Assembly (NCBI GenBank): GCA_008501785.1
Contig: QQUD01000252.1
Location: forward strand, 1 to 11,897
DNA: 11,897 nucleotides
Source of the DNA: Chloroflexota bacterium
GTDB taxonomy: Bacteria > Chloroflexota > Anaerolineae > Promineifilales > Promineifilaceae
Direction: 5' to 3'
Both the position numbers and the translations under genes were made by a program. Under the pieces are notes generated by a model. That model worked only from the letters and a program-made list of their open reading frames with translations, did no database searches and was not told the origin of the DNA. This document shows positions 4,675 to 11,581 of this stretch, piece after piece. Within the stretch, counting starts at the first letter, position 1, and the number at the start of each line of letters is the position of its first letter.

Positions 4675-5337
4675 CTAGTAACTTGAGTGGGGATCGCTTA
4701 ATTTTTCCAACTCCCAGTGTAAATTCCGGCTGGAAGCAGCGTGAAATTTGGCATGCATAAGTTCGGTGTAATAAATTCGGGGACGGCTCAAAAATGTTTG
4801 TAAAACCTTACTTCTTTCCTTACGATATTTTGCTTCTGGAACAAAAGAATATTCCTGACGAATACCAAGTGAATACAGTTGATAGCGCGTTGGTTTAGCT
4901 CCCAAGATTTCCAGGTCTGCATCTAATAGTCTCAAACAATCTGTATTTGTAGGATTGAATGGGATGTGCTTTTCGGTTGCTAGGATTAGCAGCCCAACTT
5001 TATTAATCAATTTTGATGGTTGCTGCCATTTTTTTAACAGTTGGCTGGCATATTTAGCACTTTGTTTTTCATTATTATGTGCTCGGGGATTGTAAATGAC
5101 ATCATGAAACCAGGCGGCAAGTAAGACGGCCGTTTCCCCCTCTCCACAAATCATTTTAATCGTCTCTAAAACATGGTAAATATGCGTCAGATTGTGATAA
5201 TAACGGCCGTCTTCCTCATACCTCGCCACCACATCCAACCACGCCAAATCAGCCACATCTTTGGTAACAGCAAGTGAACACACCAACGACTGCCAATCAC
5301 GATAAAGTGACTCCTTAATTCTCATTGGTGTGTCCAT
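4675..5337 (-). CDS. HD-superfamily metal-dependent phosphohydrolase (COG4339-like)
   Basis: A 220-residue soluble protein that resembles the uncharacterised 'predicted metal-dependent HD phosphohydrolase' group of COG4339. The metal-binding pattern is complete: RYYHNLTHIYHV (45-56, first His at 48), the paired His-Asp in AAWFHDVIYNP (H78, D79), NNEKQSA (88-94), TEKH (121-124), and a late acidic site LLDADLEILG (137-146). Members of this group have no firmly known substrate; they are often mis-named after an NMDA-receptor subunit. The start ATG at 5337 follows the DinB stop by 11 nt with AGGG as SD, so the two form an operon; an in-frame Met at codon 5 is a possible alternative. The gene is AT-rich like the polysaccharide locus, yet it carries two copies of the ACGGCCGT palindrome, tying it to the rest of the chromosome. 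Confidence 0.85.
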   Translation of the reverse strand: MDTPMRIKESLYRDWQSLVCSLAVTKDVADLAWLDVVARYEEDGRYYHNLTHIYHVLETIKMICGEGETAVLLAAWFHDVIYNPRAHNNEKQSAKYASQLLKKWQQPSKLINKVGLLILATEKHIPFNPTNTDCLRLLDADLEILGAKPTRYQLYSLGIRQEYSFVPEAKYRKERSKVLQTFLSRPRIYYTELMHAKFHAASSRNLHWELEKLSDPHSSY

Positions 5338-5348
5338 CGTTTGCCCTA

Positions 5349-5921
5349 TTATCGCGCTGCTTTTGCTTGAGCAACCACATCATTAATTTGATCTAAGTGA
5401 TCCCAATCATGGTACAGGCCGAGTACAAAACGGCCGTTTGCATTAATCGGTCCCGATCCCGGCCACGGCTGATACACCACATCCAAATAAGGCGTATCCG
5501 GCCACATATCTAGACTAGCTAACCGCATCCGCCTGCTTTCCTCAAGCCGCTGCCGACATTGCGCCATCGTCGTCACGTCACGCCAAGGAATTTCGCTGCG
5601 TGAACGGCCATGAAATTCCACGCCTCTTGCCATTTCGGCACCGAGAGCTGCGCTTTCCTCAGACGACGCCGTCACATGTACAATCAAATGCCCCAACGAC
5701 CAGGCAATCTCTTTTTCAGATTCATCTGACGCATAAGGGTCCCGTGCCTTGGGATCTAGCGGCTCAAATACCACATCCGCATCCTTACATCCTTCAATTC
5801 GACCCAGCATGTCATCAATCATCTCATTGGTCAGGTCCCGCAAATCATCTACTGACAAGTCAGCTACCAATTCATGAATTTTAACTTCTCGTTTTTTCAC
5901 ACGTGCAAAATCTAACATCAT
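5349..5921 (-). CDS. DinB-superfamily protein (DinB_2-like four-helix metal protein)
   Basis: A 190-residue protein of the DinB/YfiT-like fold, a four-helix bundle that usually binds a divalent metal through three histidines; roles in this superfamily range from thiol-dependent transfer reactions to stress response, and none can be assigned here. Visible ligands are the His in WSLGHLIVH (H78, perhaps H82) and the HxxxH in GLYHDWDHLDQI (H171, H175), in the expected second and last helices. The N-terminal helix (KIHELVADLSVDDLRDLTNEMID) fits the first helix of the bundle. AGAGG stands 4 nt before the first of two consecutive ATGs (5921) and 7 nt before the second (5918), so 5918 may be the true start. 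First gene of the operon with the HD hydrolase. Confidence 0.8.
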   Translation of the reverse strand: MMLDFARVKKREVKIHELVADLSVDDLRDLTNEMIDDMLGRIEGCKDADVVFEPLDPKARDPYASDESEKEIAWSLGHLIVHVTASSEESAALGAEMARGVEFHGRSRSEIPWRDVTTMAQCRQRLEESRRMRLASLDMWPDTPYLDVVYQPWPGSGPINANGRFVLGLYHDWDHLDQINDVVAQAKAAR

Positions 5922-5985
5922 TTAGCCTCTATGTTTGGAATTAAAGATACCTATTTTCCAGCTTTTAGGTTGCGATGCAATAAAA

Positions 5986-6014
5986 ATTGGGACCCTAGTT
6001 TATAGGGACCCAAT
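5986..6014 (-). terminator. Intrinsic terminator of the Ser/Thr kinase gene
   Basis: ATTGGGACCCTA (5986-5997) and TAGGGACCCAAT (6003-6014) form a 12-position stem with a single A-A mismatch in the middle and a 5-nt loop. On the minus strand the stem runs straight into TTTTTATT, a proper U tract. It lies 62 nt past the kinase stop codon and 65 nt before the DinB gene, so it closes the aldolase-kinase operon. Confidence 0.8.
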
Positions 6015-10432: not shown

Positions 10433-10485
10433 GATTTAAGTTTACGTAATATTAGGCAGATTGCAAGCTTTGATCTTATGTCGTC

Positions 10486-10698
10486 TTAAGAGGGGAATTT
10501 AATACAAAGGCACAAAGGATGAAAGTTACAAAGGAAGGAAGGTAGAAGGTTGAAGGTTGAAGGTAAATAGAATTGACCTGTCCTAATAATTACCGTTCAT
10601 GAAGGTCAGCCCCTATAATTAAGAATTGAAAGGCAAATTCCTGCTCTTTTCTTTGTACCTTTGTCTCTTTGTTTCTTTGTAATAATTTCTTTTCTTAA
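10486..10698. repeat. 213-bp nested inverted-repeat element (MITE-like) in divergent gap
   Basis: The two ends are imperfect inverted repeats: 10486-10538 against the complement of 10646-10698 matches at about 39 of 53 positions without gaps. The outermost six bases (TTAAGA / TCTTAA) match exactly. A second, inner pair, TGACCT (10574-10579) and AGGTCA (10603-10608), is centred on the same point (about 10591), so the symmetry is nested. Within the ends lie four-unit octamer arrays: ACAAAGNN from 10504 (third unit degenerate) and CTTTGTNN exactly four times at 10651-10682. There is no gene inside. A non-autonomous transposable element, or a site that folds into a long hairpin in RNA, are the likely readings. 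No clear target duplication is visible. Confidence 0.55.
10538..10565 (+). repeat. Tandem heptamer GAAGGTW x4
   Basis: Four perfect back-to-back copies: GAAGGTA, GAAGGTT, GAAGGTT, GAAGGTA. The array sits inside the left half of the inverted-repeat element and continues its purine-rich strand. It has no inverted partner on the right half. Microsatellite-like slippage is the simplest origin; it lies 103-130 nt upstream of the aldolase start on the other strand. Confidence 0.8.
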
Positions 10699-10714
10699 AA
10701 AACGGCCGTTTCCC

Positions 10715-11581
10715 ATGAATAACTGCTTCCACCCCCTCATTTGCCCGATTTGCAAATTACCATTGCAACAAATTGACCGCGGATTAAAGTGTGCCCAAAA
10801 TCATGCCTTTGACATAGCGCGTGAAGGTTATGTCAATTTGCTGCCTTCGCGAAAAAAATTGGCAGCTACGGTTGGCGATAATGCGGAAATGCTGCAAGCG
10901 CGGCGGCGATTTTTAGACGCTGGTCATTATGCGAAGCTTTCGCAGGCTATCAATCAACAAGTTGAAGTTCTTATCAAATCTGCCAACGGACAAAAACAGC
11001 AAACGGTTATCCTCGATGCGGGGTGTGGAGAAGGGTATTATTTAGGTCAGTTGCAAACATATTTACAATCTGGTACTGGGTCACACTGTTGTTTGTTGGG
11101 AATGGATGTGTCGAAAACGGCCGTTCGCTACGCAGCTAAAAAATATAGAAACGGCCGTTTCTTCGTCGCCAACATCAACACCCTCATTCCGGTAGCTGAT
11201 CAATCCGTCAATATCTTGCTCAATATATTTGCGCCGCGTAATCCGGCTGAATTTGAGCGGGTATTGGGAGAAAACGGCCGTTTACTGATCATCATACCCA
11301 AACCAAACCACCTGCAATCCATCCGCGCAGAATTTAACTTGCTGCAAATCGAAACAGACAAACAAGAGAACGTGATCAATCGTTTAGCAGCATTTTTCAA
11401 GCTGAGTCACATCACAACAATAGAAGATTCAATTTCCCTGACACAACAATCATTGACCGATTTAATACAAATGACCCCCAATGCGCATCATTTGACAGCC
11501 GCAGATTTGGCGAAGCTAGATAAACCAGGGACGTTCACGACCCAAATCGGGTTCGATATCATGCAATTTATACGGCACTAA
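10715..11581 (+). CDS. rlmA: RlmA-like 23S rRNA (guanine-N1)-methyltransferase
   Basis: A 288-residue SAM-dependent methyltransferase of the RlmA family, which modifies a guanine in helix 35 of 23S rRNA (G745 or G748 in E. coli numbering). The N-terminal zinc site is complete: C10-P-I-C13, C26, H30, followed by the family motif HAFDIAREGYVNLLPSRK. GDNAEMLQARRRFLDAGHY (54-72) is the second family mark. SAM motif I is ILDAGCGEGYYLG (99-111), and the late LIQMTPNAHHLT also fits the family. Whether it acts on G745 or G748 cannot be told. I take the ATG at 10715; an upstream TTG at 10661 in the same frame lies inside the CTTTGT octamer array and is rejected. No SD precedes the ATG: the place is taken by the palindrome AAACGGCCGTTT. 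Three more palindrome copies are within the gene (11117, 11151, 11274). Confidence 0.88.
   Translation: MNNCFHPLICPICKLPLQQIDRGLKCAQNHAFDIAREGYVNLLPSRKKLAATVGDNAEMLQARRRFLDAGHYAKLSQAINQQVEVLIKSANGQKQQTVILDAGCGEGYYLGQLQTYLQSGTGSHCCLLGMDVSKTAVRYAAKKYRNGRFFVANINTLIPVADQSVNILLNIFAPRNPAEFERVLGENGRLLIIIPKPNHLQSIRAEFNLLQIETDKQENVINRLAAFFKLSHITTIEDSISLTQQSLTDLIQMTPNAHHLTAADLAKLDKPGTFTTQIGFDIMQFIRH

What the first reader, a model, noticed from the sequence alone, without database searches (positions are those of the whole stretch)
5126..11281. A highly iterated palindrome, ACGGCCGT, in this genome
Twelve perfect copies occur in about 6.2 kb where about 0.1 would be expected by chance for an 8-mer in equal-base DNA. 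The word is its own reverse complement and is flanked preferentially by A on the left and T on the right (AAACGGCCGTTT). It sits in genes for five unrelated products. HIP1 (GCGATCGC) in cyanobacteria is the known precedent for such a word, where it is linked to methylation and biased mutation or repair. A Chloroflexota counterpart with a different sequence would be worth describing.
Basis: partly seen in the sequence, partly recalled or inferred. Interest (0 to 1): 0.85.

Follow-up and report, generated by a model that had tools for sequence, protein, structure and literature searches.

The report
Genome-wide palindromic DNA word in Chloroflexota
A short mirror-image DNA word, ACGGCCGT, is written up to about 15,000 times per genome in one group of mostly uncultured Chloroflexota bacteria and in viruses that appear to infect them, often enough to shape protein sequences, and related lineages use differently spelled versions, which makes it a second, separate case of the puzzling HIP1 word of cyanobacteria.

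Summary
ACGGCCGT occurs 12 times in the window (0.12 expected). The window's own genome is not held. Relatives reach 6,919 copies in 6.6 Mb (reversed control 46) and 15,176 in 7.5 Mb. 22 of 396 sampled class genomes carry 1,000 or more. All 22 lie in one 56-genome order, which includes Promineifilum; 31 of its 56 do.

The invariant part is CGGCCG. The outer pair is lineage-specific: A..T in most, T..A in two genomes, G..C in one, free in others; one genome uses TGCCGGCA. Sites are kept in 285 of 330 orthologous comparisons, other palindromic hexamers in 502 of 1,498. 481 of 495 Thr-Ala-Val are spelled by the word; the tripeptide is 5.7-fold too frequent. Twelve dense virus stretches, chosen from 25, carry 2.3 words/kb with similar saturation.

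It behaves like HIP1, with another sequence and phylum. No methyltransferase found is common to all carriers; an orphan DUF1156-like enzyme is a partial correlate (29 of 31 octamer genomes, 14 of 25 others). Mechanism unproven.

The parts
5126..5133 (.). ACGGCCGT copy, in 220-aa ORF 4675-5337(-), codon frame 0
5203..5210 (.). ACGGCCGT copy, in ORF 4675-5337(-), frame 1
5430..5437 (.). ACGGCCGT copy, in DinB_2 ORF 5349-5921(-), frame 1
6651..6658 (.). ACGGCCGT copy, in Ser/Thr kinase ORF 6077-9388(-), frame 0
7242..7249 (.). ACGGCCGT copy, in kinase ORF, frame 0
7746..7753 (.). ACGGCCGT copy, in kinase ORF, frame 0
8759..8766 (.). ACGGCCGT copy, in kinase ORF, frame 1
9341..9348 (.). ACGGCCGT copy, near the 5' end of the kinase ORF, frame 1
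10702..10709 (.). ACGGCCGT copy, five bases before the first in-frame ATG (10715) of the RlmA-like ORF, so possibly in its leader
11117..11124 (.). ACGGCCGT copy, in RlmA-like ORF 10661-11581(+), frame 0
11151..11158 (.). ACGGCCGT copy, in RlmA-like ORF, frame 1
11274..11281 (.). ACGGCCGT copy, in RlmA-like ORF, frame 1
1..5125 (.). Word-free stretch, 38% GC, with Wzz/AAA_31 and bacterial sugar transferase genes and one ORF without Pfam match; read as recently acquired DNA (inference)

Best explanation
ACGGCCGT is a highly iterated palindrome of the HIP class, outside cyanobacteria, in the Promineifilum-containing order of Chloroflexota. SHOWN: the word is created and kept by a force acting on DNA: it occurs in all codon frames, between genes and in virus genes. 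The force is strong enough to fill nearly every Thr-Ala-Val position and to add amino acids that spell the word. Its target is the hexamer CGGCCG with a lineage-specific outer base pair. INFERRED: a sequence-specific DNA-modifying enzyme recognises the CGGCCG-centred site, and a strand-biased repair or ratchet process coupled to it turns near-miss sites into the full word and restores mutated ones, as Elhai (2015) proposed for HIP1. The outer base pair, and so the dialect, then follows from the specificity of the current enzyme or of its repair partner. The DUF1156-like orphan methyltransferase is the best candidate found here for the octamer dialects; a different factor would have to act in the genomes with a free outer base, where it was not found.
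For: Genome-wide, and within the class and phylum samples confined to one order. Dialects on one core. Site conservation 285/330 against 502/1,498 for other palindromic hexamers and 61/158 for CGGCCG with other flanks. Protein-level imprint. All three codon frames (263/242/114) and 33 intergenic sites. Dense virus stretches have 100 of 106 Thr-Ala-Val spelled by the word. Deviations concentrate at the outer positions (38-96 per variant against 4-21 for inner variants); the same tendency for HIP1 in Phormidium. Orphan methyltransferase in 29 of 31 octamer-dialect genomes. MutS_I found in 45 of 56.
Against: No cytosine DNA methyltransferase of PF00145 or PF01555 was found in all carriers. The candidate enzyme was not found in two octamer genomes (G001, G141) nor in G004, G211, G288, G357, G418 and G419 (free-flank iteration measured in five of these; G418 not). 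It is present in 8 of 8 Promineifilum-like genomes, whose enrichment is modest where measured, and in 24 of about 361 class genomes outside the order (four by fragments), of which 20 have a CGGCCG/GCCGGC ratio below 1.1. Its fold resembles tRNA methyltransferases as much as DNA methyltransferases. Its specificity is unknown and the association is confounded by ancestry. The same site conservation would follow from plain selection on binding sites. Six A..T carriers gave no MutS_I match, though missing genome parts may explain that. The third codon frame leaves no tripeptide excess (x-Arg-Pro 0.98).
Confidence: 0.42

Rival explanations
1. Selected binding site: the word is the recognition site of a DNA-binding protein (recombination/Chi-like, nucleoid or segregation protein, or a self/non-self reader), and each copy is kept by weak purifying selection. 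Viruses carry it because their DNA meets the same protein. No repair bias is needed.
For: Strong, word-specific conservation of orthologous sites, with no such protection of CGGCCG lacking the dialect's outer bases; change of outer bases as expected for an evolving protein-DNA interface; the word in virus genes.
Against: The density, near-saturation of Thr-Ala-Val and the 5.7-fold excess of that tripeptide mean selection on thousands of single sites against amino-acid constraint. No such protein was identified or searched for. Dialect turnover between relatives would need thousands of parallel substitutions.
Confidence: 0.33
2. DNA uptake sequence: the word marks own DNA for natural transformation, and biased uptake plus recombination spreads and repairs it, as in Neisseriaceae with their DUS dialects.
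For: Thousands of copies, dialects with an invariant core distributed by lineage, conservation of copies; all are DUS features (abstract and passages of PMC3630211).
Against: Virus stretches carry the word at host-like density, which I would not expect of an uptake tag. The word is a perfect palindrome, while the uptake motifs shown in those passages are not.
Confidence: 0.13
3. By-product of codon usage, composition or recurring protein motifs, or of a mobile repeat that contains the word.
For: 94.5% of copies lie in ORFs (619 of 655; ORFs cover 89% of the bases), and two frames are preferred.
Against: All frames and intergenic copies, diverse flanks, order-2 Markov expectations of 0.1 to 2.8 against 4 to 116 observed in the A..T genomes listed, and Thr-Ala-Val not enriched in relatives without the A..T dialect (0.62-1.25).
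Confidence: 0.02
4. Restriction-driven pattern: a nuclease removes near-miss words, or words are protected by an R-M system, and the octamer is what is left.
For: GCCGGC, the reversed hexamer, is strongly depleted in some members (G188 51 against 13,814 CGGCCG; G004 132 against 21,019), so restriction-like pressure may act on words in this order.
Against: Inner near-miss words (4-21 per variant) scatter around the roughly 14 expected for any octamer in 451 kb read on both strands, rather than lying clearly below it. Avoidance cannot raise the word about 40-fold over expectation or add amino acids.
Confidence: 0.03

Closest known systems
HIP1 (GCGATCGC) of cyanobacteria and the alternate HIPs GGCGCC, rCCGGy, GCsGC, GGGATCCC (Elhai 2015, PMC4390886; abstract, sections 7, 9, 13 and two of three parts of section 14 read)
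   Same: GC-rich palindrome, about 1,000-2,000 copies per Mb, deviations greatest at positions 1 and 8, replacement by other words in single lineages. Measured here on Phormidium (61 kb): Ala-Ile-Ala 34 against 10 expected, 31 of 34 spelled by HIP1.
   Different: Different word, different phylum, a CGGCCG core with three outer-base dialects plus a free-flank state; carried by virus contigs; no methyltransferase of known matching specificity found in all carriers.
DNA uptake sequence dialects of Neisseriaceae (PMC3630211; abstract and passages seen)
   Same: Thousands of copies, lineage-specific spellings around a constant core.
   Different: Non-palindromic motifs read by ComP in transformation; here a palindrome, also dense in virus genes; uptake untested.
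Chi sites (class named in PMC4390886, passage)
   Same: Highly over-represented short word that phages may share (recalled).
   Different: Chi words are oriented (recalled); no RecBCD/AddAB link was tested here.

Membership tests
HIP class (Elhai 2015) | One palindrome over-represented far beyond other palindromic octamers | tested here: met
   Window 12 against 0.12; A..T stretches e.g. G401 115 against 2.4, G368 116 against 2.6.
HIP class (Elhai 2015) | At least 75% GC and about 500-2,500 copies per Mb | tested here: met
   6 of 8 bases G/C; about 990 to 2,100 per Mb in 27 of 28 A..T genomes, 437 in G404 (counts over rounded genome sizes).
HIP class (Elhai 2015) | Deviations concentrate at the outer positions | tested here: met
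   Outer variants 38-96, inner variants 4-21, against 1,310 words counted on both strands.
HIP class (Elhai 2015) | A methyltransferase matching the word is present in every genome with the word | tested here: inconclusive
   PF00145 in 12 of 22 carriers; PF01555 without a strong match in G001, G211, G368; DUF1156-like enzyme in 29 of 31 octamer genomes but specificity unknown.
HIP1 itself | Word GCGATCGC | tested here: not met
   Word is ACGGCCGT; GCGATCGC is not among the top octamers of any order member.
DNA uptake sequence | Thousands of copies with lineage dialects around an invariant core | tested here: met
   (G405, with another core, is an exception)
DNA uptake sequence | Promotes uptake through a receptor such as ComP | not testable with these tools
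   Needs transformation assays; competence genes were not searched.
PF01555 amino-methyltransferases (candidate enzyme) | PF01555 match over the curated cut-off with DPPY and SAM-binding motifs | tested here: met
   57.8 bits against a cut-off of 26.7, in two separate stretches; invariant TDPPY and GGGTT columns in 28 aligned sequences.
DUF1156 proteins (candidate enzyme) | DUF1156 or NF042963 match over the curated cut-off | tested here: inconclusive
   DUF1156 15.4 bits against 24; NF042963 67.5 against 1,000, E 6.8e-19: related, not a member by the curated thresholds.
PF01555 amino-methyltransferases (candidate enzyme) | Methylates CGGCCG or the octamer | not testable with these tools
   No methylome data; solved relatives align only in short motif stretches and the fold is generic.

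The most novel reading that the evidence does not exclude
The word is an identity mark. An unidentified order-specific DNA-processing system (repair, recombination or defence) reads CGGCCG plus the lineage's outer base pair and treats DNA lacking it as damaged or foreign. Hosts and their viruses have therefore both been rewritten in the local dialect, down to their protein sequences, and a switch of dialect rewrites thousands of sites and isolates a lineage from the viruses and genes of its sisters.
Probability: 0.13. Interest if true: 0.93.

Novelty: new variant of a known kind. Interest (0 to 1): 0.83.

Why it matters
HIP1 was described in 1995 (as cited in PMC4390886) and the role of its methyltransferases is still called a mystery there; that paper considers cyanobacteria. 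A separate case in another phylum, with several dialects on one core, a free-flank state, word-less relatives and viruses that carry the word, is a comparative experiment: any proposed cause must be present, altered or absent accordingly. The near-complete spelling of Thr-Ala-Val (A..T genomes), Ser-Ala-Asp/Glu (T..A) and Ala-Ala-Ala (G..C) by the local word shows that a DNA word can shape proteomes. The dialects may also offer a sequence-only way to link uncultured viruses to hosts.

Tried and rejected
Rejected: composition or codon bias; a mobile repeat (diverse flanks); an m5C methyltransferase common to all carriers or a strong PF01555 enzyme common to all, as far as these possibly incomplete genomes show; m6A on the outer base as a general cause, because the G..C dialect word has no A (reasoning). 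The orphan methyltransferase as sufficient cause: 24 of about 361 class genomes outside the order have it at 49% identity or more (four by fragments), and 20 of these have a CGGCCG/GCCGGC ratio below 1.1 (read by eye). It has no neighbour shared by more than 5 of the 20 stretches compared and gave no match in viral contigs (close relatives only).

The scan for TCGGCCGA triples gave six stretches; L302 and L306 lean to that dialect (5 in 2.7 kb, 7 in 12.6 kb), L301 and L303 hold more GCGGCCGC, L304 and L305 have few, so T-dialect viruses are suggested, not shown. The structure searches returned generic methyltransferase folds, with CcrM first in one and tRNA enzymes first in the other. A first clustering of methyltransferase ORFs used too strict a motif filter and was dropped. 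The lake metaepigenome paper (passages only) reports GANTC, TTAA and GCWGC for three Chloroflexi bins, none matching the word.
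Full report
1. The observation. ACGGCCGT occurs 12 times in the 11,897-base window, all between 5126 and 11281; 200 dinucleotide-preserving shuffles give a mean of 0.12 and at most 2. It is the commonest palindromic octamer of the window (12; next 3), and of 13 CGGCCG hexamers 12 lie in it. Copies fall in four predicted ORFs (220-aa ORF, DinB_2, Ser/Thr kinase, RlmA-like methyltransferase), in all three codon frames, one of them just upstream of a start codon. The left 5.1 kb, with polysaccharide-type genes and 38% GC against 49%, has none; I read it as recently acquired DNA (inference).

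2. Genome-wide in relatives. The window's own genome is not held. A threonine-aldolase search gave 80 loci; the best, L001 (Anaerolineae bacterium IP29b_bin.94), is 68% identical in that protein. Whole-genome counts, forward strand, with the word read backwards (TGCCGGCA) as control: G001 (the L001 genome) 6,919 in 6.6 Mb (46), G004 1,727 (4), G002 (Promineifilum sp. SSF11) 505 (183), G003 155 (282), and the cyanobacterium G005 4 (32); G006, G007 and G008 have 39, 17 and 51. In 396 genomes drawn from the class, 22 hold 1,000 copies or more, and the highest outside the order is 430. All 22 are among the 56 held genomes of the order of G001, where 31 of 56 hold 1,000 or more, up to 15,176 in 7.5 Mb. 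In 400 genomes of the phylum only G001 reaches 1,000; the highest outside the order is 471. NCBI places Promineifilum in Promineifilales. That the window belongs to this order is inferred from its nearest relatives.

3. A core with dialects. In stretches fetched from the order, some genomes poor in ACGGCCGT turned out to iterate other words on the same core. Counts with order-2 Markov expectations: TCGGCCGA in G403 (123 against 2.5) and G102 (143 against 5.5); GCGGCCGC in G188 (129 against 3.5). G004, G211, G288 and G357 iterate CGGCCG with free flanks (128 against 19, 267 against 65, 62 against 7.3, 198 against 31), and G419 does so in the 6 kb held (18 against 2.3). G405 iterates a different palindrome, TGCCGGCA (142 against 5.7; 3,665 genome-wide). 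G340, G313 and G003 show no dominant word in the stretches held, although G340 has 886 TGCCGGCA genome-wide. The fraction of CGGCCG found inside ACGGCCGT is bimodal across the 35 members of the order in the class sample: 0.43-0.85 in 19 genomes, at most 0.15 in the other 16 (counts). By eye from the class listing, CGGCCG exceeds its reversed control more than about threefold only in this order, except G323 (243 against 25); about ten genomes outside reach ratios of 2 to 3, and G313 and G340 inside lie below 1. The rpoB tree (49 rows) pairs the T..A genome G403 with the free-flank genome G004, with the other T..A genome G102 next to them, and puts the free-flank genomes G211, G288, G357 and G419 together. 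The A..T label needs at least two changes on starred branches, and several deep forks are weak.

4. DNA-level, not protein-level. In 31 A..T stretches including the window (451 kb) there are 655 words: 619 in ORFs, 33 intergenic, frames 263/242/114. Single-base deviants at inner positions number 4-21 per variant against 1,310 words (both strands), around the 14 or so that any octamer would have by chance; outer deviants are commoner, 38-96. Flanks lean mildly to GGAA on the left and TTCC on the right.

5. Proteins bear the imprint. In 25 A..T genomes Thr-Ala-Val occurs 495 times where amino-acid composition predicts 87 (5.7-fold; 0.62-1.25 in the four other groups), and 481 of 495 are spelled by the word (codon usage, itself shaped by the word, predicts 71); Asp/Tyr/Asn/His-Gly-Arg occurs 413 against 145, 354 by the word (0.69-1.66 elsewhere). 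In the T..A genomes Ser-Ala-Asp/Glu occurs 54 against 15 (0.88-1.06 elsewhere), 51 of 54 by TCGGCCGA. In the G..C genome Ala-Ala-Ala occurs 50 against 11, 46 of 50 by GCGGCCGC; but this tripeptide is 1.1 to 2.5-fold enriched in the other groups too. In four genomes without a CGGCCG octamer dialect (G340, G405, G313, G003) the spellings are 0 of 4, 1 of 11 and 1 of 26. Control tripeptides are not enriched in A..T genomes (Val-Ala-Thr 0.73, Thr-Ala-Leu 0.78, Ser-Ala-Val 0.74), and the third-frame motif x-Arg-Pro is not either (0.98). In the window 5 of 7 Thr-Ala-Val are spelled by the word. Gene calls are simple ORF scans, and related genomes are not independent.

6. Sites are maintained. In six disjoint genome pairs, counted in both directions, ACGGCCGT is intact at 285 of 330 aligned positions (0.040 differences per base), against 502 of 1,498 for the 63 other palindromic hexamers (0.166) and 61 of 158 for CGGCCG with other flanks (0.133). 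Flanking octamers of the same phase give the same contrast. Mapped to other genomes of the order, A..T sites keep the core in 0 of 80 (G403), 0 of 85 (G102), 0 of 97 (G340), 0 of 69 (G405) and 0 of 59 (G357, although G357 iterates the hexamer); in 21 of 90 (G188), 22 of 76 (G288), 41 of 69 (G004), 46 of 99 (G211), 54 of 141 (G075), 86 of 126 (G043), 17 of 98 (G313) and 59 of 113 (G003, although G003 has no dominant word). These counts repeat few distinct positions over up to 25 related genomes and are only indicative.

7. Viruses carry it. A scan of viral contigs for two extended words within 30 bases gave 25 stretches; several hold only a few copies. Twelve dense stretches that I chose (from ten contigs, 106 kb) hold 245 words, 2.3 per kb, with 100 of 106 Thr-Ala-Val spelled by the word. 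Ten proteins from five of them were tested; 7 matched some PHROG, among them tail tape measure (L158), major head/protease (L148, L165), terminase (L165) and FtsK-like (L142). Some may be proviruses, and that these viruses infect members of the order is inferred from the word alone.

8. Looking for the enzyme. PF01555 has no strong match in G001, G211 or G368. A split PF01555 match revealed a ~670-aa enzyme with an invariant TDPPY motif and conserved cysteines, distantly related to DUF1156 proteins. An ortholog (49% identity or more, some as fragments) is in 43 of 56 genomes of the order: 29 of 31 octamer-dialect genomes and 14 of 25 others (Fisher p 0.0013, ignoring ancestry). Octamer genomes here are the 31 with 1,000 or more ACGGCCGT, less the free-flank G004, G211 and G288, plus G403, G102 and G188; G408 is so classed by its count alone, G404 by its count and 4 kb. 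The enzyme was not found in G001, G141, G004, G211, G288, G357, G418, G419, G405, G340, G313, G415 and G420. It is also in 24 of about 361 class genomes outside the order (four by fragments); four of these have CGGCCG/GCCGGC ratios of 1.6 to 2.4 and 20 lie below 1.1. It has no constant neighbours in 20 stretches. It is a candidate, not a demonstrated cause. MutS_I was found in 45 of 56, so mismatch repair is generally available, though eleven genomes gave no match, six of them A..T carriers; rpoB gave none in 5 of 56, a guide to how incomplete these genomes are.

9. Comparison with HIP1. Run on 61 kb of a Phormidium genome (87 HIP1), the same tests give Ala-Ile-Ala 34 against 10 expected, 31 of 34 spelled by HIP1, and the same outer-position bias. 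The Chloroflexota word therefore behaves like HIP1. It meets the HIP class features that could be tested, except that a matching methyltransferase in every carrier is inconclusive. Paper searches (open-licence PMC only, several lists capped at 8 to 20 rows) showed no report of such a word in Chloroflexota, and Elhai's paper does not mention that phylum by the name Chloroflexi. A study of HIP1 selection that I recall from 2018 did not appear in these listings and was not read.

10. Verdict. The pattern is close to certain; the mechanism is open. I favour an enzyme-coupled repair ratchet (0.42) over plain selection on binding sites (0.33) and uptake (0.13), mainly because the word saturates virus and host DNA alike and overrides amino-acid choice.

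Noticed in passing
G405 (whole genome; L427-L446): A member of the order with a different iterated palindrome, TGCCGGCA (3,665 in 4.0 Mb) and few GGCC sites (33 against 73 expected in 9 kb); only a motif-level match to the DUF1156-like enzyme. A natural case of word replacement.
   Followed up: partly
G188, G004, G409, G410 stretches and genomes: GCCGGC is almost absent (G188 51 and G004 132 genome-wide; 0 against 10.0 expected in 35 kb of G410 and 3 against 26.3 in 34 kb of G409), suggesting a GCCGGC-type restriction system in several members.
   Followed up: no
window 1-5125: A word-free, low-GC block of polysaccharide-type genes; 5 of 38 A..T stretches in relatives also have gaps over 5 kb (0.75 expected), some at contig ends of the rpoB region. 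Word gaps could map acquired DNA.
   Followed up: partly
L009, L016, L034 (other Chloroflexota loci): Local excess of other palindromes: CCTGCAGG 7 against 0.6, ATCGCGAT 6 against 0.35, AACCGGTT 7 against 0.3. Further HIP-like words may exist elsewhere in the phylum.
   Followed up: no
window 6077-9388(-): A 1,103-aa Ser/Thr kinase with FHA domain and TSP3 repeats.
   Followed up: no
G357 and G419 (sister genomes): Neither gave a MutS_I match although both iterate CGGCCG; if real, MutS-based repair is not needed for the free-flank state.
   Followed up: no
L142, L141 (virus contigs): Very dense words (49 in 13.2 kb, 44 in 14.7 kb), including two words back to back at L142:5557-5572.
   Followed up: no
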